A DNA stretch of 64,000 bases, from positions 62,001-126,000 of the forward strand of contig NZ_SSMQ01000029.1 of the NCBI RefSeq assembly GCF_005144585.1. Reading direction: 5' to 3'. Origin of the DNA: Polyangium fumosum. GTDB taxonomy: Bacteria > Myxococcota_A > Polyangia > Polyangiales > Polyangiaceae. Made by a program: the position numbers and the translations under genes. How positions within the stretch are numbered: the stretch's first letter is position 1; every line of letters starts with the position of its first letter. Below the pieces are notes generated by a model. The model was not told the origin of the DNA and made no database searches. It saw only the letters and a list, made by a program, of their open reading frames with translations. Shown here one piece after another: positions 41,862 to 60,389 of this stretch.

Positions 41862-42161
41862 TCATCCACAGGGCACCTCGTCCTCGACGACTGCCTTGCT
41901 GCCGCGCTTGGTTGAGGGAGAGCCAGGGGGCTGGAAGACTTCCCGCCGGACGGGCTTCCATCCACTCAGCAGAAGCGATACGACCGCATCCCGTTTATTG
42001 ATGTGGTGCGTGTTACAAATCAGTGCGGTCTGCTCCCTGGTCAGGGTGTGAGCACCGATGTGCGCTAGCGTCCCACATGGGGAGTAGCCGGCTCGAGCTC
42101 TGAATTCGACAATAACGTCCAAGGCGGACGGGACGACGACGGGAGGATAGGCGTACCTCAC
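41862..42161 (-). CDS. Hypothetical protein overlapping the recombinase 3' end
   Basis: A 99-residue frame (GTG at 42161) with protein-like sequence, for example GTLAHIGAHTLTREQTALICNTHHINKRDAVVSLLLSGW. It overlaps the recombinase frame by 149 bases; in that overlap this frame looks more natural than the Arg/Ser-rich recombinase tail. The frame extends upstream without a stop for about 40 codons. Confidence 0.35.
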   Translation of the reverse strand: MRYAYPPVVVPSALDVIVEFRARAGYSPCGTLAHIGAHTLTREQTALICNTHHINKRDAVVSLLLSGWKPVRREVFQPPGSPSTKRGSKAVVEDEVPCG

Positions 42162-43881
42162 GCGACCGCTCGCATCGCTCGCGGCAACTGGAACCCCTGC
42201 AAAGTGGCTGGCGCACGCCGTTTTGACGGGTGCACGACCGTGCGTACCCCGCTGGGGACGCTGATTTAAGACATCCAGCCGCGAACAGGGCCCACAGGTT
42301 CGCGGATCCCTCCACCCAGAACCGCTTCCCTTCGGGGGTCTCGATCGGCGTGAGCTTGATCGGGCCCTCGAAGAGCATGCTGATCACCTCGCGGGCCTGC
42401 TCGGGCTTGCGCGTCAAGGTGCCCTTCAGCTCATCGAGCCGCCGCCGGGCCTCCGCCTCCATCCGTCGGAGCTCGAGCTGGATCGCCTCGGGCGCTGCCT
42501 TGGCCCCGCGAAGCCGGGCTTCGAGCGCGGAGAGCTCTTCTTGACGGTCGGCGATGGCGCGGATCACGGCCTCGGGCTTCTGGTCGATCGTCGCCAGGGC
42601 CGTGACGAGACGATCGATCTCGGTCCGGAGTCGCGCGGCTTCCTTCTCCATCCGGGGGAGATCCGTCGTCGTCTTGGTCGTCCGCTCGGCGAGGAGGGTC
42701 CGCACGTGCTGGATCACGTCGAGAAGGAGCGCCTCGGACAGAACGGTCTGGGAGATCCACCGGGCGACGGCGTCGTTGATGCCGTCGACAGGCCGGCGCA
42801 GCGTGTTCGCGCAGACCGTCTTGCCCCGATCGCGGCTGTAGGCGCAGCCGTAGACCTTCACGGTCTCGTAGCTGCGCTTGCCGTTCGTCACGGTCATCGG
42901 GCCGCCGCACTGGCCGCAGCGGGCGAGGCCTGAAAGAAGATGGCGCGCGGGCCGCCCGGCGCCGCGCCGGGTCTCGCGGTGCTCCTGCGCTTGGGCTCGG
43001 GCCTGAACGGCAAACCAGAGCTCATCGTCCACGATCCGGAGATGGGGCACCTCGGTACGGATCCACTCGGAAGGATCCCGCGCGATCCGGACCTTGGTCC
43101 CGCCCTTGTAGGTCTTCTCCCTCGTGTTCCAGACGAGGATCCCGCGGTAGCGCTCGCGGCGAAGCATCGACCAGACGGCCGAGGTCGCCCACGAGCCGGT
43201 GCCACGCTTCCCCGCGCGCGGCGGTGGGACGCGGCGAGCGTTCAGATCCTTCACGATCGAGCGTAGCCCCTCGCCGTCCGCGTACCGTTTGAATAGCTCA
43301 CGGATGATCGCCGCCTGCTCCTCGTTGATCTTGTATTCGACGCGGATCCGCTGTTCGCCGCCTCGGACTTCGGCGTTATCATAGCCGTACACGCGCCCGC
43401 CGACGACGAGCCCGCGCCGGGCCTTCGTCATCAGATGCTCGTGGGTCCTCTGGCTGATCTTCTCCCGCTCGAGCTCGGAGGCGAAGTTCCGCACGTTGAT
43501 CATGAACTTGTCGACAGCGCCGTCGATCGTCACCTCTTCGTCCGTGAAGTAGTAGAAGAGACGGACGCCCGCATCGAGTAGGTCCTGGATGAATAGCGAG
43601 GTGCGGTTGGTGTCGCCCCCGAGGCGCGACTCATCGCGCACAACGACAACATCAAATTCGCCGCGCTCGGCGGCGTTCAGCATGGCAATGAGGCCGGGCC
43701 GCTTCTTGAACTCGGCGCGGCCGTGGTCGGCATCGACAAAGACGTGCTCGGGGGCGAGTGTGCCCCCATGGTTGGTGAGGTACCTCGAACCCTCCCCGGT
43801 CTGCACTTCGATGGATGCGGCTTGATGTTCTTCTTTGCTGCGGCGGGCGTAGATGGCGCAACGTAGACCGAAGAGCTTCAT
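42013..43881 (-). CDS. Large serine recombinase (prophage integrase)
   Basis: A 622-residue large serine recombinase: N-terminal resolvase domain with catalytic Ser15 (YARRSKEE), VVVRDESRLGGD, the recombinase domain, a zinc-ribbon (CGQCGGPM...YGCAYSRDRGKTVCAN) and a coiled coil (about 395-490). It would catalyse integration/excision of the prophage to its right. The final 80 residues are basic and unlike the family, suggesting the reading frame runs on past the natural end. The ATG overlaps the stop of the preceding gene (ATGA). Confidence 0.9.
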   Translation of the reverse strand: MKLFGLRCAIYARRSKEEHQAASIEVQTGEGSRYLTNHGGTLAPEHVFVDADHGRAEFKKRPGLIAMLNAAERGEFDVVVVRDESRLGGDTNRTSLFIQDLLDAGVRLFYYFTDEEVTIDGAVDKFMINVRNFASELEREKISQRTHEHLMTKARRGLVVGGRVYGYDNAEVRGGEQRIRVEYKINEEQAAIIRELFKRYADGEGLRSIVKDLNARRVPPPRAGKRGTGSWATSAVWSMLRRERYRGILVWNTREKTYKGGTKVRIARDPSEWIRTEVPHLRIVDDELWFAVQARAQAQEHRETRRGAGRPARHLLSGLARCGQCGGPMTVTNGKRSYETVKVYGCAYSRDRGKTVCANTLRRPVDGINDAVARWISQTVLSEALLLDVIQHVRTLLAERTTKTTTDLPRMEKEAARLRTEIDRLVTALATIDQKPEAVIRAIADRQEELSALEARLRGAKAAPEAIQLELRRMEAEARRRLDELKGTLTRKPEQAREVISMLFEGPIKLTPIETPEGKRFWVEGSANLWALFAAGCLKSASPAGYARSCTRQNGVRQPLCRGSSCRERCERSREVRLSSRRRPVRLGRYCRIQSSSRLLPMWDASAHRCSHPDQGADRTDL

Positions 43882-44458: not shown

Positions 44459-45298
44459 ATGGTGGCCAGGTCCAAGCCCTCGCTCCTCGATGGCGCTGCA
44501 ATCGGGAAGGAGGGCTCGCCGGATGAGGTGATCGCCGGATCGGCCGGGTGGCACGTCGCCACGGCCGACGCGCTCGATTTCGCCGAAGCGCTCCCGGACG
44601 CGTGTGCTCACGCCGTGTGGACCGATCCGCCCTACTGCTCGGGCGGGTACACGGAATCGGCCAAGCGCCAAGCGCGCGGGATGATCACGCACAAGAGCGT
44701 GAAGTCCATGGGCTGGTTCATCAATGACAACATGGGATCCGCCGGGATCGTGTGGCTCCTGCGCTGCGTCGCGGTTCAGGCGTTCCGGATCCTGGTTGAC
44801 GGCGGGAGCCTCGGCGTCTTCTGCGACTGGCGGATGGTTCCGCTCCTCGCTCCCGCCCTCGAATCAAGCGGGCTTCGCTGGCAAGGGATGGTGATCTGGG
44901 ACAAGCGAGCTCCTGCCCTCGGGACGGGGTTCCGGCGCCAACATGAGGTCGTCCTCCACTTCGTGAAGGGGACCGGCGTCTTTCATGACGCGAGCACGGG
45001 GGACGTACTGAACGTTTCGCGGCTCCATCATGAGGCGCGGAATCACCAGACGGCCAAGCCTCCCGAGGTGATCGAACGGTGCCTCGCGGTGGTGGCTCCG
45101 CCCGGGGGCCTGGTCGTCGACTTCTTCACGGGGGGCGGCTCGACGGGCGTTGCCGCGCGGCGGCTCGGGATGCGGTTTCTCGGGAGTGAGATCGATTCGA
45201 GGATCGCGGCGCGAGCTCGTGAGGCGATCCGGGCGCAGAGCACGGACGCGCGACGCGTGGGCAAGGCGCATCAACTCGGGCTCTTCGACGGCGAATAA
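44459..45298 (+). CDS. DNA methyltransferase (DPPY type)
   Basis: The 279-residue protein has the catalytic motif DPPY (about 54-57) before the SAM-binding motif FFTGGGSTGVAA (about 221-232), the beta-class order of N6-adenine or N4-cytosine methyltransferases. It lacks a companion restriction enzyme; an orphan methylase in a prophage usually protects the phage genome against host restriction. It is the first plus-strand gene of the prophage early block. Confidence 0.85.
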   Translation: MVARSKPSLLDGAAIGKEGSPDEVIAGSAGWHVATADALDFAEALPDACAHAVWTDPPYCSGGYTESAKRQARGMITHKSVKSMGWFINDNMGSAGIVWLLRCVAVQAFRILVDGGSLGVFCDWRMVPLLAPALESSGLRWQGMVIWDKRAPALGTGFRRQHEVVLHFVKGTGVFHDASTGDVLNVSRLHHEARNHQTAKPPEVIERCLAVVAPPGGLVVDFFTGGGSTGVAARRLGMRFLGSEIDSRIAARAREAIRAQSTDARRVGKAHQLGLFDGE

Positions 45299-45322
45299 CC
45301 TTGTCGATTTTCAGTGAAGACC

Positions 45323-48001
45323 ATGGACCTCGACCCGAAATATCTTCCGGATCCTGACGATCCGCCTTCGCTCGCGGCATCCCTCTACGTGAGCATGGGC
45401 TGGAGGCCGCTTCCCCTTTGGTCCGTCGATCCGAGGACAGGGGCCTGCGAATGCTCGCGCGGCATGCGCTGCGGTGGGAGCGCGGGCAAGCACCCGCGCA
45501 TGCGCGCGTGGCAGGATTTGCGGCCGACGCGCGAGGACGTCCTCGCGTGGTGGAAGAAGTGGCCCGATGCGGGGGTCGGCCTGGCGATGGGTGGTGAGGC
45601 GCGGCTCGTCGCTCTGGACATCGACGGGCCTGCCGGGCGGGAGAGCTTGCGCGCGCTCGAGGCGGTCCATGGTCCCCTCCCCCGGACCTTGACTTCGCGC
45701 TCCGGGCGGGTCGACGGGGGCGAGCATCGCGTGTTCGTCGTGCCGCGCCACTTCGACATGAGCGCGATCCGGAACAACGCGGGGAAGCTTGCGACGGGGC
45801 TCGACGTGCGCGGGGATGGCGGGCAAATCGCGACCTGCCCGACGGTGCATCGCACCGGGAGCGTCTACACGTGGATTGATCGTGTTCCGGTGGCGGAGTT
45901 GCCGAGGTGGCTGTTCGAACGGATGGCATCGGCGAGCACGCGCGCGGCGGCTCCGGCGCGCACGGAGGCGAGCGTGGCGCCTGAGGCCCCCTCCTTCGGC
46001 GAGGATCACGCCCGGTATGCGCGGGCGGCGTTGAATCAGGCGATCGAGGTGGTCGAGCGGGCGCCGAAGGGCTCCCGGAATGACACCCTCAATCGTGAGG
46101 CCTACTCGCTCGGTGGGCTCGTCGCGCGTGGGCTGCTCTCGGCGAGCGAGGTCGAGGATGCGCTCTACGGCGCCATGCTGAACGGTCGGTGGGATCCGGA
46201 GGCGATCAAGGCGCAGCACCTTCGAACCTTGCGCCGGGCGCTCGAAGATGGGCGCGCGGCTCCTCGGACGGTTCCGCCGCGGTCGAGCCATGGGCGAGGC
46301 GCTTCGGATTCGCTGCAAAACGGGAGGTCGCGCGAAGCGGGTCGGGGGGCGGAATCGGTCGTGGACGACGATGACATCGAGCGGGCGGCGATCATGGCCG
46401 AGGGCAAACAGGCTCCTACCCGGTCGGACGTGGGCCGAGCTCCGAGCCCCCCGCCTGCCGCGAGTCCTCGGCGAGACAGCACGGATCGCGCGCCGCGTGC
46501 GCTACCTGCTCTCCGAGCGGGTACGGGTGAATGTACCGAACTCGCGAACGCGGAAGGCCTCGTCGCGGTCCACGGCGCGGATCTGCGATACGTGGCAGAG
46601 CTCGGCGGCTGGTATCACTACGATGGGCGGCGCTGGTCGCGTGATTCGCCAGCGGCCGAGCGGGCGGCGAAGGATTACACGCGGCTCCTTTCGCTCGTCG
46701 CGGCGGAACGCCTCGCGGCGGCGCGGAGGGCGCTCGATGCGGTGGCCGAGTCCTCGGACGAGACGGCGATCAAGCGGGCTCGGGCCGCGCTCGACGGCGC
46801 ACAACGTCGTTACGCGTGGGCGATGCGCTCGCAGGGGGCGCGTGCCCTCTCGAACATGCTCGCGCTCGCGTCGTCGGAGCCGGGGGTGGTCGTGCCGGCG
46901 TCAGCGTTCGATGCGGATCCGTGGTCGCTCTGCTGCCTGAATGGCGTGGTGGACCTGCGGACGGGGAAGCTGCGCCCGCATCGGCGGGAAGACCTGATCA
47001 CGCGGCTTGCTCCGGTCGTGTACGATCCCGCGGCGCGGTCGGAGCTCTGGGAGACCTTCCTCCACGACGTCACGGGCGGCGATCGGGAGCTCGCCGGCTT
47101 CCTTGGCCGCGCCGTCGGCTACTCGATGTCGGCGGACACGAGCGAGGAAAAGCTTTTCTTCGTGCATGGGCCCGCGGCCTCGGGCAAGTCGACGTTCCTC
47201 GAGGCCGTCAAGGCGACGCTGGGGGACTACGGCACGACGTCCGATTTCGAGACGTTCCTGGTCCGGCCGCTGGTCGGCGCGCCTCGGAATGACATCGCCA
47301 GGCTCGCGGGGTCACGATTCGTCGTCTCGATCGAGGTGGACGACGGCAAACGGCTCGCGGAGGCGCTCGTCAAGAGCATCACGGGCGGCGATACGGTGAC
47401 CGCTCGGATGCTCTATCAGGAGTCGTTCGAGTTCAAGCCGACGTTCAAGTTATGGCTTGCGGCAAACCATGCGCCCCGCGTGAGCGACGAGGATCTGGCC
47501 ATGTGGCGGCGGATCCTGCGCATCCCGTTTGACAGGGTGATCCCGAAGGAACGGCGCGATCGACGCGTAAAACGCACGCTCACCGACGTGCGGAAATCGG
47601 GAGCGGCCATCCTCGCGTGGGCGGTGCGCGGCTGTCTGGCCTGGCAAAAGGATGGGCTCGCGGTGCCTGCGTCGGTCGAGGCTGCGACCGAGACATACCG
47701 GCAGGAGAACAACCCGCTCCGGGAGTTCCTGGACGATGAATGCGTGGTCGCCAAGGACCGGGCGGTCTGGCCTGATGTGTGGGTCACGCGTTCAGCCCTC
47801 CGCGAGGCCTACGAGCGCTGGGGAAAGGAGAACGGCGCGCGGCATCTGCTCGGGCCGAAGGCATTTACGCGGCATCTGCGGGATCTTGGCTGCAATGACA
47901 AGGCGAAACGGTGGGTGGATAATGCTTCGGTGCGGGCTTGGGAGGGAATCCGATTACGGCAAGCGGCGGACGATGCGATGGACGAGGTGGGCCATGCGTA
48001 A
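45323..48001 (+). CDS. Prim-Pol primase fused to P4-type SF3 helicase
   Basis: An 892-residue protein (ATG 45323; a GTG three codons earlier is possible). The N-terminal bifunctional primase-polymerase domain shows GWRPLPLW, GKHPRM and VALDIDGP (about 98-104) with later DGGEHRVF. A linker rich in Arg/Ser/Pro (about 320-400) leads to a D5_N/P4 region and a superfamily 3 helicase with GPAASGKS (about 616-623), SIEVDDGK and LWLAANHAPRV. It would initiate and drive replication of the prophage or related element. The iteron-like cluster follows directly. Confidence 0.88.
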   Translation: MDLDPKYLPDPDDPPSLAASLYVSMGWRPLPLWSVDPRTGACECSRGMRCGGSAGKHPRMRAWQDLRPTREDVLAWWKKWPDAGVGLAMGGEARLVALDIDGPAGRESLRALEAVHGPLPRTLTSRSGRVDGGEHRVFVVPRHFDMSAIRNNAGKLATGLDVRGDGGQIATCPTVHRTGSVYTWIDRVPVAELPRWLFERMASASTRAAAPARTEASVAPEAPSFGEDHARYARAALNQAIEVVERAPKGSRNDTLNREAYSLGGLVARGLLSASEVEDALYGAMLNGRWDPEAIKAQHLRTLRRALEDGRAAPRTVPPRSSHGRGASDSLQNGRSREAGRGAESVVDDDDIERAAIMAEGKQAPTRSDVGRAPSPPPAASPRRDSTDRAPRALPALRAGTGECTELANAEGLVAVHGADLRYVAELGGWYHYDGRRWSRDSPAAERAAKDYTRLLSLVAAERLAAARRALDAVAESSDETAIKRARAALDGAQRRYAWAMRSQGARALSNMLALASSEPGVVVPASAFDADPWSLCCLNGVVDLRTGKLRPHRREDLITRLAPVVYDPAARSELWETFLHDVTGGDRELAGFLGRAVGYSMSADTSEEKLFFVHGPAASGKSTFLEAVKATLGDYGTTSDFETFLVRPLVGAPRNDIARLAGSRFVVSIEVDDGKRLAEALVKSITGGDTVTARMLYQESFEFKPTFKLWLAANHAPRVSDEDLAMWRRILRIPFDRVIPKERRDRRVKRTLTDVRKSGAAILAWAVRGCLAWQKDGLAVPASVEAATETYRQENNPLREFLDDECVVAKDRAVWPDVWVTRSALREAYERWGKENGARHLLGPKAFTRHLRDLGCNDKAKRWVDNASVRAWEGIRLRQAADDAMDEVGHA

Positions 48002-48252: not shown

Positions 48253-48292
48253 GTGGCGGCGATGTGTGGCTCGGCCGGACGGGAGGCAGCGC

Positions 48293-48479: not shown

Positions 48480-49628
48480 TCACCCCTGGTTCTGCTCGAT
48501 GTCGTCGGGGGTGAGGGGTTCGATCGGGTCGAGGCCCGAGTTCTTCTTGTGCTCCATGCGGTGCTCGAAATTGGCCATCGAATCTGAGGGGTCGATCGCT
48601 TCGAGCCTGAGCTGGAAGAAGGTCTCGATGTCGAACGCTACGGAAAGAATGGGGTAGCGATCTGGGAAGCCCGTCTGGGTGTTCGTCCACGGGTAGGCCA
48701 CGTGGACCAGCGTGACGGGGATCCGGAGGATCGCGAAGACCTCCCGGGCGATGCGGAGGGCGGCGCTGCACACGTGGTCCTGGTAGATCGACCAATACCG
48801 CTGGGTCGGCATCGTCTTCCGGGAGATTCTACCCGTCGACGTGTAGGAGACCGCCTCGTCAGGCAGGACGCTTTGATCGTTCGCGGTGAGCCATGCCTCC
48901 ACGCACCATGGGCGGGTGATGCACACGTTCAGTGAGGATCCGAGCTGCTGGAAGGCTTGGAAGGGGCCGAGGTGGTCGAGGACCGCCTGGCAGGCTTCCG
49001 GGTCGCCGGAAAGGACGCCCTGCGCGGCGCGCTGGAACCATTTCCAGCGGTCGAGCTCGTTCATGTACGCGGCGTAATGGGCGCCGTACTCCTGCTCATC
49101 CTGAGCGCGGGCGACGTGGACGGCTTGCTGGAGTTCTTCGAGGCGGCGATCAGCTCCGGTGAGCTTTCCGAGGACGCCGGGGCGGTGCGCCTGGAGGGCC
49201 TGGAGGGCGGCGGCCTCGCGGTGGTTCTGGCGGTACGGCTGCGGGGGCGCGGGCGATGCGGCGATCTGGCGCCAGTCCCAGGGGGACCACCCTTCGTGGT
49301 GAAGCGTGGTCAGGGCGCGGAGGTGCTGCTCGTGGAGCTGGACCTCGTCGAGGATCGGCTGGTGGTAGGGGGCGCGGCTCGGGTCGTGCTGGGCCGCGAG
49401 CATCTGCTGATACTGCGCGCCGGCCGAGGAGCCGACGCGCTGGCCGGCGCCGAGGTTCTGGCTCCAGTGGAGGCCGGCGCCGGGGATGCCGAAGTGGGCG
49501 CGGGAGCCGGCAGGTCCGGTGCTGACGCGGAAGCCGGGGACACCCCAGGATGCGCCGATGCCGCGGCTGCTCAGGTTGACGCGGAAGCCTCCGGGGATCT
49601 TGATGCTTTTACGAAACCGGAGCGCCAT
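48480..49628 (-). CDS. DUF4236-domain protein
   Basis: The 382-residue protein starts with MALRFRKSIKIPGGFRVNLSSRGIGASWGVPG, the diagnostic glycine-rich DUF4236 beta domain. A Gln/His/Ala-rich helical middle (about 70-190) follows, then a folded C-terminal region. DUF4236 proteins are found on phages and mobile elements with unknown activity. Oriented against the phage genes and paired with the kinase upstream of it, it looks like cargo. Confidence 0.7.
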   Translation of the reverse strand: MALRFRKSIKIPGGFRVNLSSRGIGASWGVPGFRVSTGPAGSRAHFGIPGAGLHWSQNLGAGQRVGSSAGAQYQQMLAAQHDPSRAPYHQPILDEVQLHEQHLRALTTLHHEGWSPWDWRQIAASPAPPQPYRQNHREAAALQALQAHRPGVLGKLTGADRRLEELQQAVHVARAQDEQEYGAHYAAYMNELDRWKWFQRAAQGVLSGDPEACQAVLDHLGPFQAFQQLGSSLNVCITRPWCVEAWLTANDQSVLPDEAVSYTSTGRISRKTMPTQRYWSIYQDHVCSAALRIAREVFAILRIPVTLVHVAYPWTNTQTGFPDRYPILSVAFDIETFFQLRLEAIDPSDSMANFEHRMEHKKNSGLDPIEPLTPDDIEQNQG

Positions 49629-49776
49629 GGCAGATCGTTGGGTCGGTTGGCATCAGGAGTTGCCATTGGCCGCTACGCGACCTGGGCGGGGCAGCAAGCA
49701 AAGAGGAGAACGACGAGCCTGGCGGGAAGCGGCGCATGGGTGCGGCTGGGACATACCGGCCGAAACTCGCCACGGC

Positions 49777-50643
49777 TTAAGGCTGTTGCAAGTCTCGCCA
49801 CAATTCAACCGCCGTTTGTGTCCTTTGGGCGACAGTTCGCCGGAGAGCTTTTTCGAGCGCTGGTCCCCAAGGTGGAGGCAAGTCTGCGGCCACGCTTCGG
49901 GGCAGTCCATCCAGAATCTGCGATTTTTCAAATTGGAGATCCTGCCCGTGCCAGACTGAGAGCAAGAGCAATCCCGCGTGATAGATATCGGTCTGCGGAC
50001 CAACATAACCAAACCGGTCCGGGGCGAGGAATTCGGGCGGGAGCATCCACTGGGCAAGCACGGTGCCGAAAAAGTCGATTTCGGTTGCGAGCCTACTGAT
50101 ACCGAGGTCTCCAATTTTGAACGTCACGGAGGATGCTGGCGTCGCATCCATCTCGTTTCTATGCATCAACCAGAATATATTTCCTGAGTGAATATCCTTA
50201 TGAACATACCCCTGACTGTGGACAAAATGAATGCCACTAAGGATACACCTTGCTATTGGGCGCATCCAGACGCTACCGTCATAGCCCGGCATCGCGAAAA
50301 GATCTTTAAGCGTGCCGGTGCAGCGTTCGATAACGATCGAAAATGCGTTCTGGTGTTCAAACCAGCTGTAGACGTGGGTGATATGTGGATGCCGTAGCGT
50401 ACTCAATGCCTGAATCTCACGCTCCCAATTCGCCTTGATTTCTTCGTACGTTCGGTTACGGGGACTCAGCGTCTTGACGACGAGTGCGTTATCGAAGTCA
50501 TCGACCGCCTCATGCACGAGGCCAAAGGCTCCGTTACCAAGCCTTTTCCCGACCGTGATGGTTTCTCCCGTAGGAAGGAGGTATCTGTGCCCAGGTTCCG
50601 GGAGGACAACCAACCGATCGCGAGTCGTGAGCGTGCGTGCCAT
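49777..50643 (-). CDS. Serine/threonine protein kinase, probable cargo
   Basis: A 288-residue Hanks-type kinase without membrane or sensor domain: glycine loop LGNGAFG (35-41), Lys57, Glu76, catalytic HKDIHSGN (148-155, with HKD replacing the common HRD) and DLG (179-181) replacing DFG. All catalytic residues are present, so activity is likely. The gene is visibly AT-richer than its neighbours and inverted relative to the phage genes, both signs of recent acquisition. Prophage-borne kinases can block superinfection; here the target is unknown. Confidence 0.85.
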   Translation of the reverse strand: MARTLTTRDRLVVLPEPGHRYLLPTGETITVGKRLGNGAFGLVHEAVDDFDNALVVKTLSPRNRTYEEIKANWEREIQALSTLRHPHITHVYSWFEHQNAFSIVIERCTGTLKDLFAMPGYDGSVWMRPIARCILSGIHFVHSQGYVHKDIHSGNIFWLMHRNEMDATPASSVTFKIGDLGISRLATEIDFFGTVLAQWMLPPEFLAPDRFGYVGPQTDIYHAGLLLLSVWHGQDLQFEKSQILDGLPRSVAADLPPPWGPALEKALRRTVAQRTQTAVELWRDLQQP

Positions 50644-50910
50644 ATAGGGGAGCGCAGTTACGTCATTCTCACGCGCCGCGCAAGTCCCTCTGGTGGGTCC
50701 CCGGGCTGCCGAGAGAGCAAAATATCTACCCAGAATGCGATCAAAAACTGGTTGAGTACCTACATTTGTTGCATATTGTTGTTGATGTCACGGACAGTGG
50801 GTTTGGGGGGCACTCAGGGGACCAGCACTTTCGCGCTTTGCAACGCCCACTGACCTCGGCGGGATCGGTCGAGGGCGACCGGGAGGTCGGGGCCGCGTCG
50901 AGGGCCTCGC

Positions 50911-51655
50911 GGTCGGCGAGCCCGGCGCGCGTAAGGGGTCGAGGGCCCCTCGGCTGGCCGGCCGGGCCTCGGCGAAAATCTTCCCCGGGGTCGAGGCGCC
51001 CTGACCGCGCTCAACATCGTATTTCCGCCACCCCCGCATCCGGGGGGGTCAGAGTGGCGGAAACCAAGGCGGCGGAAACCCTCCGCGTCGAGCTCGTCGG
51101 CGAGCGTCGCGGGGCTCGACGTCGAGGGCTCGATCGTCGGTTCGTCGGAGTCGCACGATGCCGCGGGGGCCGGCGTCGAGGCAGGTGATCGCGGCGTGGT
51201 CGAGGGCGACGGCGAGGCCGGGCGGCGTCGAGGGCGTCGAGCCCGGCGCGCGTAAGGGGTCGAGGGCCCCTCGGCGGGCCGGCCGGGCCTCGGCGAAAAT
51301 CTTCCCCGGGGTCGAGGCACCCCGACCGCGCTCAACATCGTATTTCCGCCACCCCCGCATCCGGGGGGGTCAGAGTGGCGGAAACCAAGGCGGCGGAAAC
51401 CCTCCGCGTCGAGCTCGTCGGCGAGCGTCGCGGGGCTCGACGTCGAGGGCTCGATCGTCGGTTCGTCGGAGTCGCACGATGCCGCGGGGGCCGGCGTCGA
51501 GGCAGGTGATCGCGGCGTGGTCGAGGGCGACGGCGAGGCCGGGCGGCGTCGAGGGCGTCGAGCCCGGCGCGCGTAAGGGGTCGAGGGCCCCTCGGCGGGC
51601 CGGCCGGGCCTCGGCGAAAATCTTCCCCGGGGTCGAGGCACCCCGACCGCGCTCG
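50911..51655. repeat. Tandem repeat, 321-bp unit, about 2.3 copies, with cruciform
   Basis: The sequence around 51011, 51332 and 51653 repeats with an exact period of 321 bp. The first copy is partial and diverged; the next two are almost identical. Each full copy contains the perfect 10-bp inverted repeat TTTCCGCCAC ... GTGGCGGAAA (51023-51063; 51344-51384) enclosing a CCCCCG/CGGGGG inner stem, plus many GTCGAG hexamers. It lies between the kinase promoter side and the late phage genes. The period is a multiple of three and one minus-strand frame stays open, but no protein is recognised. Confidence 0.85.
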
Positions 51656-51718
51656 ACATTTTATTTTTTGCTTTCTCGGATCACCGGACGGAGCGAGGCT
51701 TCGCGAAGGAGGTAGCTT

Positions 51719-52132
51719 ATGGACGGGCTGCGATCGAATTGGGAAGCCGTCGTCGAAACGATCTCCAAGGGAACACGGGATCCGAGGCTCGCGGCGGCGC
51801 TCGATATCCGCGCGTCGGGGCGCATCAGCCTGGCGGAAGCTGCTTCGATGCTCGGCGAGCCCACGGCGGCGCCAGGGTGGCGAAGGAAGCTCACCCGACG
51901 GCTGCGATACCTCGAACGCATCCACGGCGTTTCACTTCTGGTGCCACAAATCGGACGCCGCGGAACGGTCGTCATGCTCGAGGGGCTGCGCGAGGCGTGT
52001 CCGATTCCGGTGGCGTCGGTCCTCGCGATGCAAGAATTCCACGCGCGGCTCGTCGGGATGGAAGGCAGGCTCGGCACTTTCGAGGGAGAGGTCGAACGGT
52101 TGAAGTCCCCCGCCGCCTCGAAAAGAGGATAG
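51719..52132 (+). CDS. Hypothetical protein, possible HTH
   Basis: A 137-residue protein with an excellent GAAGGAGG site. The segment ISLAEAASMLGE...WRRKLTRRLRYLERIHG (about 40-75) suggests a DNA-binding helix-turn-helix, and the C-terminus is a helix. It opens the late operon and could be its regulator or a small packaging accessory. Confidence 0.5.
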   Translation: MDGLRSNWEAVVETISKGTRDPRLAAALDIRASGRISLAEAASMLGEPTAAPGWRRKLTRRLRYLERIHGVSLLVPQIGRRGTVVMLEGLREACPIPVASVLAMQEFHARLVGMEGRLGTFEGEVERLKSPAASKRG

Positions 52133-52172: not shown

Positions 52173-52454
52173 ATGGCTTTACCTTTGGCGGAGACCCCAC
52201 AACGGCGATACAGGCGCATCGTGCGCGAAGTCCTCGACGCTCGCGGCCGCTTCTGCGAGTGCTGCGGCGTTCCCGCGCGGCACGTTCACCACATCATCCC
52301 CTGCTCGATCTCGGGGATCGCCTCGGAGCTCGTGTTCGATCCCGCGAATCTGATCGTGATCTGCAACGATTGCCACATGCTCATGCACCCCCTGATCCGG
52401 AGGCCGTCATGGACCAAAGCAGCGAAAGGCCGCGGGATCGCGCTCAATCGTTGA
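52173..52454 (+). CDS. Phage HNH endonuclease
   Basis: A 93-residue HNH protein: CECCGVPARHVHHIIP, then NLIVICNDCHMLMHP. HNH nucleases encoded next to terminase genes often work in DNA packaging (as gp74 of HK97). It precedes the terminase genes and overlaps the next gene by 46 bases. Confidence 0.85.
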   Translation: MALPLAETPQRRYRRIVREVLDARGRFCECCGVPARHVHHIIPCSISGIASELVFDPANLIVICNDCHMLMHPLIRRPSWTKAAKGRGIALNR

Positions 52455-52801: not shown

Positions 52802-53329
52802 ATGAACGGCGGCCGCCCGACCCTCCGCACCCCCGAGGTCGAAAAGCAGATCCTCGACGCGCTTCGGCTCGGTCAACTTCACCGGCCGACGGTGTGCGCG
52901 CTCGTCGGGATCAAGCCGCGGACGCTGCGAGATTGGCGAAAGCAGGATCCGGCGTTCGATGCGGCGATCCGAGCCGCGGAGGCGAAGGGCGAAGCGCGGC
53001 TCGCCTCGATCGCGACGCAAGGGGCCGCAGACGATCCGCGCCTCGCGCTCGACATCCTGCGCGCGCGGTACCCCGAGAAGTGGAACCGCAGGCATACGCG
53101 GGTCGATGGCAACGTGCATGTTGACGTCGCTCGCCCCCCAACGCTCCCCAAGGAGCTGCGCGTCGCGTGGGATGCGGGCGCGAAGAGCGGTTGGAAGGAT
53201 CGGAAGGCTTGTCGGGAGCTCGAAATCTACTGGGCGACGGGCGAGATCGGGAGGCCTGAGCAGATAGCGGCGCTCGAAAAGCTCTTGGCCGAGCTCAAGG
53301 CAAACCCCGAGCCGTACCTCGGGGAATAA
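52802..53329 (+). CDS. Small terminase-like subunit
   Basis: A 175-residue protein with an N-terminal helix-turn-helix (VEKQILDALRLGQLHRPTVCALVGIKPRTLRDWRKQDPAF), followed by a helical central region and an acidic C-terminus. Position, length and HTH match TerS proteins that bind the packaging site. Family match is by context and pattern. Confidence 0.65.
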   Translation: MNGGRPTLRTPEVEKQILDALRLGQLHRPTVCALVGIKPRTLRDWRKQDPAFDAAIRAAEAKGEARLASIATQGAADDPRLALDILRARYPEKWNRRHTRVDGNVHVDVARPPTLPKELRVAWDAGAKSGWKDRKACRELEIYWATGEIGRPEQIAALEKLLAELKANPEPYLGE

Positions 53330-53333
53330 CTCG

Positions 53334-54743
53334 ATGGCGAAGGCTTTCGGCTATCGGGTGGGCGATTTCTCGTTCAAGGAGCACGGGCGGATAGCTGCGG
53401 CCCCCTCCGAAGGCCTCGCGGCGTTCATACCGGCTGTTACGCCAGGCTATGCGCGTCCGGATCATCTCGCTCCGCTGATCGAGCTGCTCGAACGTGCGCG
53501 GCGCGAGCCTGTCCGCGCGGTCATCCATGCGCCTCCACGGCATGGGAAGACGGACACGATCCTCCATGCGATCGCGTGGTACTTGCGAAAGGATCCGACC
53601 CTCCCGATCGCTTATGCGACGTACGGAATCGAGCTGGCCAACAGCAAGAGCCGCGACGCTCGGGCGATAGCGCGCGCGGCCGGCGTCGAGCTCGACGCGG
53701 GCGCGAAGGGCGTCGGCGAGTGGCGGACGCGCGAGGGTGGACGGGCGGTGTTTACCGCGCTGAATGGCTCACTGACGGGCAAGGGGTTCCGCGTCCTCTT
53801 CGTGGACGACCCTTTCAAGAACCGAATCCAGGCCGAAAGCCCCACGTACCGTTCGCGGATATGGGACCTCTGGCAGGGCTCGACGATCAACCGCGTCGAG
53901 CCGGGCGGGAGCGCGATCGTCCTTGCCACGCGGTGGCATCCCGAGGACCTCTCGGGGCGGCTGATCTCCCAGGGCTGGCAGTACCTTCGCTTGCCTGCGC
54001 TCACCGACGACGAGCGCGCGCTGTGGCCCGAACGCTGGCCCGCGGCCGAGCTCGAAGCACGGCGGCGCGAGGTCGGGGAATACACGTGGGCCTCGCTTTA
54101 CCAGGGCGTCCCGCGGCCGCGAGGCGGGGCCGTGTTCAACGCAGAGCCGGCCCTCTACACCCCCGAGGCCCTCAACGAGGTGCGGGAGTATCGCGACGGG
54201 ATCGGCGTCGATTTCGCGTATACCGCACGAAAGCATGCGGATTACTCGTCCGCGGTCGTCATGCGCTCGCACGAACCGGAGCGCGGGCGGCGCGTGTACT
54301 ACGTGCTCGAATGTCTGCGAAAGCAGGTCCTCGCGCCCGAGTTCGCGGCGGACGGGGCGCGGCTGCAACGGGCGCACGGGGGATGCAAGGCGATGGGCTA
54401 CGTCACGGTGTTTGAAAAGATGATCGTGCCCTTCATGTCCGATCGGGGCTTCACGGTCGAGGCGCGCCGCGTGAAGGCGGACAAGTTCACGCGCGCGCAG
54501 CCGTACGCGGCATCCTGGAATGACGGCCGCGTGCTTCTCCCTCAAGACGTCGGCCCGGATTCGTGGGTCAACGTCTTCCTGGCGGAGCATCTTCGATTCA
54601 CGGGGCAGGACGACGACGAGGACGACCAGGTCGACGCCGGCGCCGCCGCGCATGACCTGCTCTCCTCGCCTGCGGGGCGGATCGCGGGCTCGTTCTCCGC
54701 GGCGAACAAGCGACCGGTGAAGCTGACGAGGTACACCCGATGA
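53334..54743 (+). CDS. Large terminase subunit
   Basis: A 469-residue protein. Walker A APPRHGKTD (about 65-73), Walker B VLFVDDP (about 153-159), an ATPase motif LATRWHPEDL and the RNase H-like nuclease with GVDFAYT (about 291) and later acidic QDDDEDDQVDA. Packages concatemeric or integrated phage DNA into proheads. The start lies four bases after the TerS stop, and the portal gene begins inside its end (ATGA). Confidence 0.88.
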   Translation: MAKAFGYRVGDFSFKEHGRIAAAPSEGLAAFIPAVTPGYARPDHLAPLIELLERARREPVRAVIHAPPRHGKTDTILHAIAWYLRKDPTLPIAYATYGIELANSKSRDARAIARAAGVELDAGAKGVGEWRTREGGRAVFTALNGSLTGKGFRVLFVDDPFKNRIQAESPTYRSRIWDLWQGSTINRVEPGGSAIVLATRWHPEDLSGRLISQGWQYLRLPALTDDERALWPERWPAAELEARRREVGEYTWASLYQGVPRPRGGAVFNAEPALYTPEALNEVREYRDGIGVDFAYTARKHADYSSAVVMRSHEPERGRRVYYVLECLRKQVLAPEFAADGARLQRAHGGCKAMGYVTVFEKMIVPFMSDRGFTVEARRVKADKFTRAQPYAASWNDGRVLLPQDVGPDSWVNVFLAEHLRFTGQDDDEDDQVDAGAAAHDLLSSPAGRIAGSFSAANKRPVKLTRYTR

Positions 54744-56104
54744 ACCGCGCTCCTCGCGTTCGGTACGCGCAACACGTGTTTGCGCCGCTCATGGGCTGGG
54801 ATAACGACCGCGTGCGGCAGGCGCTCGAACGGCATGAAGCCGGCGATTTTCGCGAGTCGGCGGACCTCGCGGAAGCACTCTTGACGGACGAGCGGCTCGA
54901 CGGCGCCCTTCAGCAACGGATCGACGGGCTGCTCGCGCTGCCGCTCTCCTTCGAGGTGTCCACCGAGACGGATGACAAAGACGCGGCGGAACTCGCGCAA
55001 CGGGAGGCCGCGGAGGTGTGGTGGCGCTTCTGCCCCGAGCCCGTGCTGCGGGACGTGCTCAAGTGGTTGATCATGCTCGGCGTCGCGGTCGTGCAACTGA
55101 ATTGGACCGAGGAGCGCGGGCAATGGCTGCCCCTGCTCGAAGTCTGGCATCCGCGGGATCTGTGGTTCGATGGGCACGAGGTCACATACAAGGTCGGCAC
55201 TCCGACCACGCAGATCGCGCTTGGCGCGGATCCGCACAAGTGGGCGATCTTCGCGTCGGGGAGCCAGACCCCTTGGATGAACGGCGCCGTTCGGCGGGTG
55301 GCCATGTACTACCTCGCGAAACAACAGATGTTCACGGATTGGGCCCATTACTCCGAGGTCTACGGGCATCCCACGCGCGTCGGTCGGTATCCCGCGGCCC
55401 TCGATGAAGCTGAGGAGACGGCGCGGGAGCGCGACGCGTACCAGGACGCGCTCGTCAACGCAGGGAAATCGCCGGTGATCATGCTCCCGGTGGACATCGA
55501 TAGCGAGGGGAAAGCGGCAGCGGGCTGGGGTTACGAGCTCGTCCAGGCGGACGGCGCGAGCGCGGTCGAGGTGTTCGAGCGCGGGATCCGATACTGCGAC
55601 AGCGCGGCGGCGATGGCGATCCTCCGGCAGACGCTCACCATGGAACCTGCGCCGATCGGCTCGCATGCGCTCGGAAAGGTCCACAACGCGGTCCGGCATG
55701 AGGGGAAGCGGGCGGATACCGAAGGGCTCGCGACGACGGGGCATTTTCAGGTGCTACGGCCGTGGGCGCTGTTCAATTACGGGGACGAACGCCTCGCGCC
55801 GTGGCCGAAGTGGGATACGAGGACGCCGGAGGAGCGCGAGGCGCAAGCCGAGGCCGAAGTGCTCGAAGCACGACGGCGCGCGGACGTGGCGAAAGCTGAG
55901 GCGGAGGCAAAACGCGCTACGGCGGACGCCATCAAGGCGCATGCGGCGGCGGAAGCTGAGGCGCTGAAGTTGCGCGCCGAGTCGCTCGGTACGCTCGCGG
56001 AAGCGCTGGCGAAGCTCGCGGGTGGGTCGGTCGTGGAGCGAATCGACGTCGAGGCGCTCTTCAAAGAGCTGGGGGTGCCGCTGCGCGCTTCGACGGCGGA
56101 GTAG
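54740..56104 (+). CDS. Portal protein, Mu gp29/DUF935 type
   Basis: A 454-residue protein with LLTDERLDGALQQRIDGLLALPLSFE near the start, LIMLGVAVVQLNW, and HPRDLWFD, the DUF935 portal pattern of Mu-like phages. The C-terminal 100 residues form an Ala/Glu-rich helix that would be the tunnel region. ATGA overlap with the terminase stop. Confidence 0.82.
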   Translation: MNRAPRVRYAQHVFAPLMGWDNDRVRQALERHEAGDFRESADLAEALLTDERLDGALQQRIDGLLALPLSFEVSTETDDKDAAELAQREAAEVWWRFCPEPVLRDVLKWLIMLGVAVVQLNWTEERGQWLPLLEVWHPRDLWFDGHEVTYKVGTPTTQIALGADPHKWAIFASGSQTPWMNGAVRRVAMYYLAKQQMFTDWAHYSEVYGHPTRVGRYPAALDEAEETARERDAYQDALVNAGKSPVIMLPVDIDSEGKAAAGWGYELVQADGASAVEVFERGIRYCDSAAAMAILRQTLTMEPAPIGSHALGKVHNAVRHEGKRADTEGLATTGHFQVLRPWALFNYGDERLAPWPKWDTRTPEEREAQAEAEVLEARRRADVAKAEAEAKRATADAIKAHAAAEAEALKLRAESLGTLAEALAKLAGGSVVERIDVEALFKELGVPLRASTAE

Positions 56105-56220: not shown

Positions 56221-57276
56221 ATGGCTCGAAACGGTCGCGCAACGCTCCGCCTTGTAGATTTGTCCGGGGATCCGCCCGGCGAGGTGCTGCTCTTCCGCGC
56301 AGGCGTGAACAAATCGTACAAAGGCCTCCTCCTCTTCGATGAGGAAGCCGCGCGCCGCGTCCTCGCTGACTTCGAGGCGCACGGCGCGGAGCTCTTCTTC
56401 GATTACGATCACGCCTCCCTCTTCGGCTTCTCGAAGGGCGCGGGCGAGGCGGCCGCGTGGTTCCGGCCCGAGGTCCGCGAGGGCGCGCTATGGGCCGTCG
56501 AGGTCCGGTGGACCGAGGAGGCCGCGGAGAAGGTGCGGGCGCGGAAGTATCGCTACATTTCGCCCGCGGTCGACTACGAGCTCGATAGCAACCGGATAAC
56601 GCGGCTGATCAACGTCGCGCTGACGAACCTGCCCGCTTCGCACGGGTTACCGCCGCTGATGGCGGCTTCGCAGGGAGCAAAAGGGATGCTGGAAGGCGCG
56701 CTCGCACATATCGCCTCGGCGCTCGGGCTCGATCCCGATTCGGCGAGTGAGGACGACGTGATCAAGGCATTTGACGATCACATGGCCGAGGAAGGCGGCG
56801 ATGAGGGGGACGACGCGTTGAAGGATAGCGACGCGGCGGAGGCCCTCGCGCAGATCCGCATGCTGACCGGGAAGGCGACGACGCGCGAGGCGCTCGCTAC
56901 CGCGGCCGAGGAGCTGCAAGCGGCGCGCGCGTCGGCCATCGAGGACGAGATCGGCGCGCTCGTGGACCGTGGCATCGCGGCGAAGCTCATCCCCGAGGCC
57001 GGGCGGGAGGCATTCGTCAAGCTCGGCCGGAAGGACCTCGACGCGTTGCGGGAACTCGTCGGGAGCACGGGCGAGGATCCCGAGCGGGAGAAGCCGAAAA
57101 AGGAACCGCCGAAGGGCGATCCCCCGAAGAAACCGGCGGCGAGGCCCTCCCCTCCGGCAAACCGCTACCAGCAAGCGAGCCTCGCGGCGCGTACGCGGCG
57201 AAATGGCGAGTTCGATCTCCAGGTGGCGAAAACCCTGCGGATCGATCCCGCCGCGATGGACGACGGCGACGATTGA
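56221..57276 (+). CDS. Prohead protease, Mu gpI-like
   Basis: A 351-residue protein. The N-terminal part carries AELFFDYDHASLFG, YRYISPAVDYE and LTNLPASHGLPPLMAAS, the gpI protease pattern; cleavage releases a C-terminal scaffold, here an acidic/Lys-Pro-rich region with a coiled coil. A 116-base gap with a GC-rich hairpin separates it from the portal. The start follows no strong ribosome site. Confidence 0.8.
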   Translation: MARNGRATLRLVDLSGDPPGEVLLFRAGVNKSYKGLLLFDEEAARRVLADFEAHGAELFFDYDHASLFGFSKGAGEAAAWFRPEVREGALWAVEVRWTEEAAEKVRARKYRYISPAVDYELDSNRITRLINVALTNLPASHGLPPLMAASQGAKGMLEGALAHIASALGLDPDSASEDDVIKAFDDHMAEEGGDEGDDALKDSDAAEALAQIRMLTGKATTREALATAAEELQAARASAIEDEIGALVDRGIAAKLIPEAGREAFVKLGRKDLDALRELVGSTGEDPEREKPKKEPPKGDPPKKPAARPSPPANRYQQASLAARTRRNGEFDLQVAKTLRIDPAAMDDGDD

Positions 57277-57720: not shown

Positions 57721-58668
57721 ATGATCATCACGCGTTCAAGCCTGCGGGCGATGTTCAAGGGCTTCCAAATCCTCTTCAAGAGCGGGATGGGCATGGCGGA
57801 GCCCTGGGGCTCGAAGGTCGCCCGCACGTTGCCGAGCACGGGCGAGGAGGAAACTTACTCTTGGCTGACCGCGATCCCGGGCCTTCGGCATTGGGTCGGC
57901 CCGCGCGTGGTCGAGAACCTCCGATCGCGTAGCTTCACGATCAAAAACAAGCCCTTTGAGAAGACCCTCGGCGTCGAGCGGGAGAAGATCGAGGACGACA
58001 AATACGGGATGTACGGCGATTACGCGAGCCTGCTCGGGCAGCAGGCCGCGAAGCATCCCGACGACTGCATCGCGCCGATCCTCCTCTACGGGGAGCAAGC
58101 GAGTTACCTCGATCCTCTCGTCGGGCCGGTCTCCCTCGTCGTCTACGATGGCCAGCCTGTCTTTTCCGAGGTGCATCCGGTCGACCAAGACGATCCGGAT
58201 TCGCCCGTCCAGGCCAACTATTACCCCTCGGGGATGGCCCTCACGCCCGAGAATTACGAGCTCGTCCGCGCGAACATGCGGTCGCTCGTCGACGTGAACG
58301 GGCGGCGCATCGGGATCAAGCCGGACACGCTGATCGTGAGCCCGCAGAAGGAGGGCGCGGCGAAGCGGATCGTGGAAGCCGAGACGATCGCCCGCGGCGG
58401 CGCGCAGGAGGACAACATCAATCAGGGGACGGCCGAGGTGCTCGTGATCGATGAGCTGAGCGATTCGCCGGGGGTCTGGTTCCTCGCCATGCTCAAGAAT
58501 CAGTTGATGCGGCCGATCATCTGGCAGGAACGGCAGAAGCCGCGATTTCAGGCGCTCATGAACGGGAGCGAATACGCGTTCGTGAATAACCAATACCTCG
58601 CGGGGGTCGACTGCCGGGGCAACGCGGCTCCGGCCGTCTGGCAGAGCATCGCGAAGTGTCGCCCGTAG
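57721..58668 (+). CDS. Major capsid protein, Mu gpT-like
   Basis: A 315-residue protein with the gpT order: N-terminal LRAMFKGFQILFKSGM, WLTAIPGLRHWVGPRVVENL, FTIKNKPFEKTLGVEREKIEDDKYGMY, and C-terminal RPIIWQERQKPRF. It forms the capsid shell. Position directly after decoration protein confirms it. Confidence 0.88.
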   Translation: MIITRSSLRAMFKGFQILFKSGMGMAEPWGSKVARTLPSTGEEETYSWLTAIPGLRHWVGPRVVENLRSRSFTIKNKPFEKTLGVEREKIEDDKYGMYGDYASLLGQQAAKHPDDCIAPILLYGEQASYLDPLVGPVSLVVYDGQPVFSEVHPVDQDDPDSPVQANYYPSGMALTPENYELVRANMRSLVDVNGRRIGIKPDTLIVSPQKEGAAKRIVEAETIARGGAQEDNINQGTAEVLVIDELSDSPGVWFLAMLKNQLMRPIIWQERQKPRFQALMNGSEYAFVNNQYLAGVDCRGNAAPAVWQSIAKCRP

Positions 58669-59883: not shown

Positions 59884-60389
59884 TGGGCGGCTGGGACGAG
59901 ACGAGCCTCGGGCGATTCGCCAAGGAGCTCCATGCGAAAATGAACGTCGAGGGCCTCGATCTTGCGATCGGAAAAGACGAGGGGCGCGGGCTCGCCTCGC
60001 CCGCGCGGCTGATCGTCTCGGTGCCGGAACATGAGGACCTCGAACCTCCGGCGCAGCAAGGCGGCGTGGGGAAACACATCTGCGAGGATCGCGTGATCGA
60101 AGCGACGTTCACGGTCTGGGGGAGCTCGCCCGTCGAGGCGGAAAGCGTCTACCTCCGCCTGTTGCAATCGGTGCGGGAGCTCGGGGTGAGCCGACGGGCG
60201 CGTGGTTATGGGCGCGTGCAGTGGATCGCGGGGGCCGGGCGCGCGGGTTCGGCGGGGGTCAAGGTGGTCGTCCCGATGTCGATCCGCCTTCCGGTGGTGG
60301 ACGTCGAGCTGCGGCATGCGCTGATCTTGAAAGCCTCGGCCGAGGGGGAAACGGCTGCGCCCGATGGCTCGAAACGTGAGGGGTTCTGA
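59880..60389 (+). CDS. Tail-terminator-like protein
   Basis: A 169-residue protein with a beta-rich centre (VIEATFTVWGSSPVEAESVYLRLL) typical of tail terminators. The position just before the sheath gene fits Mu gp37-type proteins. Second ATG three bases later is an alternative start. Confidence 0.5.
   Translation: MMGGWDETSLGRFAKELHAKMNVEGLDLAIGKDEGRGLASPARLIVSVPEHEDLEPPAQQGGVGKHICEDRVIEATFTVWGSSPVEAESVYLRLLQSVRELGVSRRARGYGRVQWIAGAGRAGSAGVKVVVPMSIRLPVVDVELRHALILKASAEGETAAPDGSKREGF

What the first reader, a model, noticed from the sequence alone, without database searches (positions are those of the whole stretch)
48480..50643. DUF4236 protein and Ser/Thr kinase as inverted prophage cargo
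The two genes are opposite to the surrounding phage genes and the kinase is clearly AT-richer. The kinase has all catalytic residues but HKD and DLG variants and no sensor domain. Such cargo often gives the lysogen immunity to other phages; this pair could be an undescribed kinase-based system.
Basis: partly seen in the sequence, partly recalled or inferred. Interest (0 to 1): 0.6.

Follow-up and report, generated by a model that had tools for sequence, protein, structure and literature searches.

The report
Swappable defence slot in Polyangium prophages
The kinase is one of several different, probably phage-fighting genes that occupy the same exchangeable pocket in a family of dormant viruses of Polyangium soil bacteria; the neighbouring DUF4236 gene looks like an edge of that pocket rather than the kinase's dedicated partner.

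Summary
The genes are real: a 288-aa non-RD Ser/Thr kinase (GC 0.54; window mean 0.66) and a 382-aa DUF4236 protein, both opposite to the nearest phage genes, inside a Polyangium prophage (serine recombinase, methylase, PrimPol-D5, slot, HNH, terminase, Mu-type portal, tail sheath). The proposed DUF4236-kinase pair is not conserved. Close DUF4236 copies (87-94% identical) in other Polyangium genomes have a different AT-rich gene in the kinase's place: TIR, AAA_15 ATPase + GvpU, DUF4145 (plus DUF4062 downstream), or DUF4365. Sister prophages without DUF4236 hold bSEFIR, DUF4365 or unknown genes there. A ~320-bp direct-repeat array borders the slot. In nine loci I counted 13 cargo genes, GC 0.52-0.56, without blastp similarity to each other (some share a Pfam family or TIR-like fold); 10 of 13 have immunity-type domains, and one strongly matches the PADLOC family bSEFIR. 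The kinase falls in a clade (99/99) that includes AT-rich genes of two predicted viral contigs. Best reading: a prophage defence hotspot in which this kinase is one interchangeable candidate effector. Protection and mechanism are inferred, untested. PADLOC's PD-T4-6 models do not single it out: ordinary kinases of the same genome score higher.

The parts
49777..50643 (-). non-RD Ser/Thr protein kinase, 288 aa, AT-rich cargo gene
48480..49628 (-). DUF4236 N-terminal domain (3-55) plus ~320-residue helical/coiled-coil and alpha/beta C-terminal region; one edge of the slot
49667..50866 (.). variable slot: no DNA match in the same-genus loci compared; DNA similarity ends at 49622-49666 on the DUF4236 side (by locus) and resumes at 50867, the start of the repeats
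   Evidence: blastn against same-genus loci
50867..51659 (.). direct-repeat array, unit 321 bp, about 2.5 copies, GC 0.71-0.74; related arrays border the cargo in the other eight slot loci
45314..48001 (+). PrimPol-D5 replication protein (phage backbone, replication side of the slot)
   Evidence: lies in a 5.3-kb stretch 88.6% identical to the G292:C1 prophage
44459..45298 (+). DNA methylase (N6_N4_Mtase)
42013..43881 (-). large serine recombinase (likely prophage end)
51719..52132 (+). 137-aa protein without a Pfam or PHROGs match; next to the repeats
52173..52454 (+). HNH endonuclease
52802..53329 (+). terminase small subunit
53334..54743 (+). terminase large subunit, 93-98% identical in 7 further copies of the same genus
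54740..56104 (+). Mu-type portal
56221..57276 (+). head maturation protease
57721..58668 (+). major head protein
60389..62437 (+). tail sheath (contractile tail)

Best explanation
The kinase is one interchangeable cargo gene in a hypervariable slot of a contractile-tailed Polyangium prophage, between the replication gene (PrimPol-D5) and the packaging genes. The slot is bounded by a ~320-bp direct-repeat array and, in several copies, by a DUF4236 gene. SHOWN: position, changing content, low GC, mostly reverse orientation, immunity-type domains in most cargo, intact catalytic residues, and membership of a kinase clade that includes genes of two predicted viral contigs. INFERRED: cargo is swapped by recombination in the repeats and the flanking conserved DNA. 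INFERRED: the kinase is a stand-alone anti-phage effector expressed by the lysogen, silent until infection by a competing phage triggers it, after which it phosphorylates host or phage proteins and aborts the infection. As a non-RD kinase (HKD) it probably does not need activation-loop phosphorylation (general knowledge of kinases), so control would come from inhibition or from binding a phage product.
For: Same-genus genomes carry close relatives of this prophage (terminase 93-98%; 8 copies in 4 of 6 genomes). G292:C1 (L119) keeps the order recombinase, methylase, PrimPol, DUF4236 (94%), slot, repeats, 136-aa gene, terminase, but has an AAA_15 ATPase and GvpU instead of the kinase. Other slots hold TIR_2 (L134), DUF4145 + DUF4062 (L133), DUF4145 + CAP12-TIR (L136), SEFIR = bSEFIR, 353.9 bits (L169), DUF4365 (L173, L135), unknowns (L120). 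The 13 cargo proteins have no blastp match to each other below E 0.16 and GC 0.519-0.564. Ten of 13 have immunity-type domains (9 of 12 without the kinase). In the 7 prophage copies 10 of 11 cargo genes run against the phage genes. The kinase has no close copy in the other 5 genomes of the genus (best 35-36%). Kinase clade 99/99 with L103, L104 (IMG/VR contigs, kinase GC 0.52-0.53; L103 also has DUF4062 and FRG genes) and L050 (GC 0.49, about 2.6 kb from a serine recombinase).
Against: No experiment; no substrate or trigger known. Only the SEFIR gene reaches a strong match to a named PADLOC family; the TIR, CAP12 and AAA genes fall far below NCBIfam's curated cut-offs, and 3 of 13 cargo genes (GvpU-like, 422 aa, 355 aa) have no immune link. 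I picked cargo by eye from a rough gene list and dropped short GC-rich ORFs in or beside the slots (such as window 48227-48472, L169 3999-4283, L133 11063-11494) and an 80-aa one over the remnant in L136, so the narrow GC range is partly selection. The cargo is not wholly unrelated: two DUF4145, two DUF4365, and three with TIR or SEFIR domains. No matched control set was scanned. The genome gave 142 kinase matches, so a captured kinase is not remarkable in itself. Clade members L051-L054 have no phage-like neighbours in my gene lists. The repeats also occur where I saw no such cargo (L166, L167, L168, neighbours not scanned). Only 4 of 7 prophage slots are complete; the others end at contig breaks.
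Confidence: 0.62

Rival explanations
1. Modular system with a constant partner: the DUF4236 protein is a sensor, adaptor or immunity protein that works with whatever effector lies upstream; the kinase is one of several plug-in effectors.
For: In the four loci with an intact copy (window, L119, L133, L134), and in L135 where the copy is incomplete (residues 1-180, one stop reported, at a contig end), a cargo gene lies directly upstream on the same strand. The DUF4236 gene is under purifying selection (dN/dS 0.14-0.24 in 6 of 6 pairs).
Against: Three of nine slots lack it (L169, L120, L173) and L136 has only a remnant. Relatives in other genera stand among varied neighbours, without a common upstream gene in my gene lists. 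bSEFIR occupies the slot without it.
Confidence: 0.12
2. Lysogeny control: the kinase acts on the prophage's own or a co-resident prophage's repression, as KKP does, rather than on incoming phages.
For: KKP, a prophage kinase module, does both (PMC11341870, passages).
Against: No phosphatase and no second kinase between PrimPol and the repeats; the six sister prophage slots seen, three of them cut by contig ends, hold no kinase, so the phage family does not need it for its own cycle.
Confidence: 0.08
3. Kin discrimination: cargo genes are toxins or markers that separate related myxobacteria, as loci on Mx-alpha prophages of Myxococcus xanthus do.
For: Myxobacterial prophages are known carriers of such loci (PMC10047993, passages).
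Against: The cargo domains (SEFIR, TIR, DUF4062, DUF4365, AAA_15, kinase) look intracellular; no delivery domain was reported by Pfam for the cargo. Signal peptides and immunity genes were not searched for.
Confidence: 0.06
4. Passive hitch-hiker: an AT-rich kinase captured by chance with no function for the phage or the lysogen.
For: Kinases abound in this genome; of six same-genus genomes only this one has it.
Against: Open frame with all catalytic residues kept; clade relatives in other phage-like cargo positions; most same-slot genes have immunity-type domains.
Confidence: 0.12

Closest known systems
P2-type prophage defence hotspot (PMC9519451; four systems lie between the replication endonuclease and portal genes)
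   Same: exchangeable cargo position between replication and packaging genes, one or two genes at a time, different defence-type genes in related prophages
   Different: different phage (serine recombinase, PrimPol-D5, Mu-type portal) and host; bordered by a ~320-bp repeat array and often a DUF4236 gene; protection not shown
KKP, prophage kinase-kinase-phosphatase module (PMC11341870)
   Same: prophage-borne Ser/Thr kinase
   Different: one kinase, no phosphatase, no CSD or FHA domain reported by Pfam; different neighbours
PD-T4-6 (kinase defence family in PADLOC)
   Same: single-gene Ser/Thr kinase (family character recalled)
   Different: best model match (91.8 bits) is far below that of ordinary kinases of the same genome (222-304 bits), so no specific kinship is shown
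MADS MAD6 kinase
   Same: best PADLOC model by bits (99.8), kinase domain only
   Different: 57.6 bits against NCBIfam's cut-off of 460; short stand-alone kinase
bSEFIR
   Same: occupies the same slot in the sister prophage G292:C5 (L169)
   Different: unrelated protein; shows what kind of gene the slot takes

Membership tests
Prophage defence hotspot (P2-like sense) | fixed position between conserved phage genes | tested here: met
   PrimPol side and HNH or terminase side both conserved in window, L119 and L169; HNH/terminase side with unnamed early genes in L120
Prophage defence hotspot (P2-like sense) | content differs between close relatives | tested here: met
   13 cargo genes in 9 loci (7 of them prophage copies) without mutual blastp similarity below E 0.16, though two pairs share a Pfam family
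Prophage defence hotspot (P2-like sense) | cargo includes known defence families | tested here: met
   bSEFIR 353.9 bits in L169; other cargo has weaker or domain-level matches only
Prophage defence hotspot (P2-like sense) | cargo protects the lysogen from phages | not testable with these tools
   needs plaque assays
Protein kinase (PF00069) | domain score and catalytic Lys, Glu, Asp, Asn, Asp | tested here: met
   100.2 bits; K57, E76, D150, N155, D179 invariant; activity not tested
PD-T4-6 | model match above that of ordinary kinases | tested here: not met
   window kinase 91.8 bits; paralogues L003, L004, L006, L007 303.7, 293.0, 253.0, 222.2 bits
KKP | two kinases and a PP2C phosphatase in one cluster | tested here: not met
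   besides short ORFs only the kinase and the DUF4236 gene lie between PrimPol and the repeats
MADS (MAD6) | NCBIfam cut-off | tested here: not met
   57.6 of 460 bits
DUF4236 (PF14020) | Pfam gathering score | tested here: met
   63.8 against 27 bits, residues 3-55
Known fold for the DUF4236 protein's C-terminal region | match to a solved structure | tested here: inconclusive
   no Foldseek PDB match at E <= 0.001; VIA best Z 6.0 on the long helices

The most novel reading that the evidence does not exclude
A modular prophage immune unit: a constant DUF4236 coiled-coil protein serves as common sensor or adaptor for interchangeable upstream effectors (kinase, TIR, AAA_15 + GvpU, DUF4145, DUF4365), and flanking 320-bp repeats act as an exchange device, so the phage re-arms by swapping the effector while keeping the sensor.
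Probability: 0.12. Interest if true: 0.75.

Novelty: new member of a known kind. Interest (0 to 1): 0.5.

Why it matters
It adds a well-bounded candidate prophage defence hotspot in a myxobacterial genus, and it names genes to test: a mobile clade of short non-RD kinases, a 728-aa and a 320-aa DUF4365 protein, two DUF4145 proteins, and two proteins without any family match. It also gives DUF4236, which PHROGs and viral structure libraries show in many phages but which only one paper of the searched open library names, a context in which its role can be tested. Slots like this can reveal defence genes that searches of ordinary defence islands miss.

Tried and rejected
DUF4236-kinase pair as a system: rejected. 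My first counts by tblastn (1 of 29; 1 of 16) were too low; the profile search gives 2 of 29 and 2 of 16. All are two loci of G212 (L012 = L041 = L099; L038 = L042 = L100), which look like copies of one segment; the kinase is convergent to the C-domain gene and 27-29% identical to the window's. In ten wider stretches (L039-L048) one search also finds kinases about 6 kb away in L039 and 3-5 kb away in L046.

PD-T4-6 by PADLOC match: rejected after the control with ordinary paralogues.

Capture from the host's own kinases: the nearest own-genome relative, L002 (32-35% identity), has look-alikes in many genomes of the host family and falls in a different branch.

Phage, viral and plasmid collections: the kinase gave 6 distant phage records (21-26% identity), 69 plasmid records (best of those listed 29%) and 2 IMG/VR contigs (48% and 46%). 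P0001 gave only N-terminal matches (within residues 1-65) in 7 phage records. In the three read no kinase is annotated (most genes there are hypothetical): the gene lies among tail genes in the Pasteurella phage and shortly before a ~5-kb gene in the Acinetobacter and Clostridioides phages. The IMG/VR scan with the P0001 alignment found no relative.

Structure of the DUF4236 protein: mean pLDDT 78.7, low up to residue 60; no informative fold match. The best viral-library hits were mostly other DUF4236 domains.

Fixed recombination site: the repeat-side junction varies within the repeat, so a site-specific cassette system was not supported. Misassembly at the repeats: full repeat copies occur at one place in this genome, so a wrong join is unlikely, but no reads were seen.

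Papers: PMC9519451, PMC11341870, PMC10047993 (passages); PMC13174449 (abstract and outline); PMC10810196, PMC3710099 (search listing with start of abstract). None of the papers listed names this slot in its title or shown abstract; listings were capped at 12-20 (searches had 97, 185 and 26 papers).

Full report
WHAT IS THERE. The two reported ORFs exist at the stated coordinates and strand. Pfam gives DUF4236 for residues 3-55 of the 382-aa protein and a protein kinase domain for residues 30-236 of the 288-aa protein, no second domain. The kinase is clearly AT-richer than its surroundings (0.540 against a mean of 0.663); the DUF4236 gene is not (0.68). The kinase comes first and the DUF4236 gene follows 148 bp downstream on the same strand. 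HKD in place of HRD makes it a non-RD kinase; the lysine is invariant in the seven sequences (window and six relatives), so it is a lineage feature. DLG/DFG varies among them (5/2).

WHERE IT LIES. Around the pair are a large serine recombinase, a DNA methylase, a PrimPol-D5 replication protein, HNH nuclease, terminase subunits, Mu-type portal, head protease, major head protein and tail sheath: a contractile-tailed prophage. The host genome is 13.0 Mb in 201 contigs. A same-genus genome (G368) has a contig, C17, of 236,059 bases, the length of the Polyangium sp. y55x31 contig, with the same P0001 relative, so the genus is taken as Polyangium.

THE PAIR IS NOT CONSERVED. A relative of the DUF4236 protein was found in 29 of 282 genomes of the phylum, own genome included, often in the N-terminal domain only. 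Among 29 loci fetched from other genomes (L010-L038, 1.5-kb flanks where contigs allow) a kinase profile finds a kinase in two, L012 and L038 (tblastn had found only the first). Among 16 further loci with up to 6 kb of flank it finds two, L099 and L100 (tblastn had found only the second). These four are the same two loci of one genome, G212, which look like copies of one segment; the kinase is convergent to the C-domain gene and 27-29% identical to the window's. Among 29 kinase loci (L050-L078, five of them in the window kinase's clade), and in L103 and L104, none encodes a relative of the DUF4236 protein.

A SLOT WITH CHANGING CONTENT. In six genomes of the genus the terminase has 8 copies in 4 genomes, 93-98% identical. 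The DUF4236 protein has three further intact close copies (87-94%) and one incomplete copy in G370, at a contig end and with one stop reported. The kinase has none: the best matches in the other five genomes are 35-36%. DNA comparison shows similarity ending around the DUF4236 start (49622-49666 by locus) and resuming at 50867, in the repeat array. What lies between differs each time: window, kinase; L119 (G292:C1), AAA_15 ATPase and a GvpU match; L133 (G292:C42), DUF4145, with a DUF4062 gene downstream of DUF4236; L134 (G368:C17, the place of L087), TIR_2; L135 (G370:C94), a 728-aa DUF4365 protein; L136 (left end of G292:C1), DUF4145, a DUF4236 remnant and a CAP12-type TIR; L169 (G292:C5), SEFIR without DUF4236; L173 (G370:C199), a 320-aa DUF4365 protein without DUF4236; L120 (G368:C30), two proteins without a family and no DUF4236. 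L134 and L135 show no phage genes around them in my gene lists (judged from translations, not scanned; the two share a further gene beyond the repeats), so the repeat-cargo-DUF4236 unit is not confined to the prophage. A profile search finds no kinase in the eight other loci. Four of the seven prophage copies are complete (window, L119, L169, L120); L133, L136 and L173 end at contig breaks. L116, L117, L118 and L122 stop in the repeats and say nothing about content.

HOW THE CARGO WAS COUNTED. I took 13 ORFs from a rough gene list and left out short GC-rich ORFs in or beside the slots, an 80-aa ORF over the DUF4236 remnant in L136, and the genes between further repeats of L134. Their GC range (0.519-0.564) is therefore partly selection. 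They have no blastp match to each other below E 0.16, but two share DUF4145, two share DUF4365, and three have TIR or SEFIR domains, so the families are fewer than the genes. In the seven prophage copies 10 of 11 cargo genes run against the phage genes.

WHAT KIND OF CARGO. Ten of 13 proteins (9 of 12 without the kinase) have domains of the immunity type. The strongest single result is L169, which matches PADLOC's bSEFIR at 353.9 bits. DUF4062 has been reported as a TIR-like NADase domain forming an anti-phage system (PMC13174449, abstract); DUF4365 as a nuclease domain associated with short Argonautes (PMC10810196, start of abstract), and L173 has a 65-bit match to such a PADLOC model. DUF4145 is named ten times in a paper on the HEPN superfamily (PMC3710099, listing only). 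For the AAA_15, TIR and CAP12 genes matches are partial and far below NCBIfam's curated cut-offs. No matched set of other accessory prophage genes was scanned as a control; the backbone proteins scanned show none of these cargo domains, apart from two AAA matches below cut-off in PrimPol-D5, and among them the methylase has PADLOC matches of its own.

THE KINASE CLADE. In 377 genomes of the phylum 34, own included, have a match at E <= 1e-30: five at 39-51% identity (L050-L054), the rest at 32-38%, among them the own-genome gene L002. Two IMG/VR contigs encode relatives at 48% and 46% (L103, L104). Both kinase genes are AT-rich (0.52-0.53) among GC-rich genes of a shared backbone (PDDEXK nuclease, DNA polymerase A), and L103 also carries DUF4062 and FRG genes beside the kinase. 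A tree joins the window kinase with L050-L054, L103 and L104 (99/99) apart from the L002 group and four ordinary kinases. L050, the nearest, has GC 0.49 and lies about 2.6 kb from a serine recombinase; L051-L054 show no phage-like neighbours in my gene lists. PADLOC kinase models do not discriminate: four ordinary kinases of this genome match PD-T4-6 at 222-304 bits, the window kinase at 91.8.

THE DUF4236 PROTEIN. It is constrained (dN/dS 0.14-0.24 over 6 pairs). Its C-terminal region (from about residue 61) is predicted with fair to high confidence as helices, a long helix 159-207 and an alpha/beta part, while the DUF4236 part is poorly predicted; no informative structural match. Related proteins with or without the DUF4236 domain occur in other Myxococcota-type genomes and a few other bacteria. 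It is absent from three of nine slots, so it is not required for the slot; whether it works with the cargo is open.

MECHANISM. Shown: position, exchange of content, composition, domains, intact catalytic residues. Inferred: exchange by recombination in repeats and flanking conserved DNA; the kinase as a stand-alone effector that stops other phages, by analogy with prophage hotspots such as that of P2, where four systems lie between replication endonuclease and portal genes (PMC9519451, passages), and with KKP, where unleashed kinase activity blocks lytic phage (PMC11341870, passages). The analogy is of function and position only; membership in KKP, PD-T4-6 or MADS was tested and not met.

VERDICT. 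The more general finding is an exchangeable cargo slot, probably a defence hotspot, in a Polyangium prophage family.

Noticed in passing
window 50867-51659; also L119, L133, L134, L135, L136, L166, L167, L168, L169: A ~320-bp GC-rich direct repeat, strongly folding on paper, with matches in 6 of 6 genomes of the genus. It borders cargo in prophages but also occurs away from them, and several contigs break in it. Nature unknown.
   Followed up: partly
L171 4665-8493 (G368:C17): A GajA/GajB (Gabija) pair by PADLOC (617.9 and 567.5 bits) about 4 kb from repeat fragments and on the same contig as the TIR slot locus L134.
   Followed up: partly
L106 142-3396 (own genome, contig C37): AT-rich 1084-aa AAA ATPase with an Avs1b match of 94.5 bits, on a contig that also holds a fragment of the repeat.
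   Followed up: partly
L119 10371-10859: A protein above the NCBIfam cut-off for gas vesicle accessory protein GvpU (88 against 70 bits) next to an AAA_15 ATPase inside the slot.
   Followed up: no
L120 5059-6327 and 7420-8487: Two slot proteins (422 and 355 aa) without a match in Pfam, PADLOC or NCBIfam at the limits used: candidates for unknown defence genes.
   Followed up: no
L002 1486-2346: A short kinase with look-alikes across the host family, next to a protein that looks TerB-like (recalled, not tested).
   Followed up: no
L174, L176 near 4001: In an Acinetobacter and a Clostridioides phage a DUF4236 gene lies shortly before a ~5-kb gene, a place typical of the stretch before the tape measure gene (recalled; not annotated so).
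   Followed up: no
L136/L119 (G292:C1): Two prophage halves of this family, each with its own methylase and slot, lie back to back around one serine recombinase gene near the contig start (the recombinase judged from its translation).
   Followed up: no
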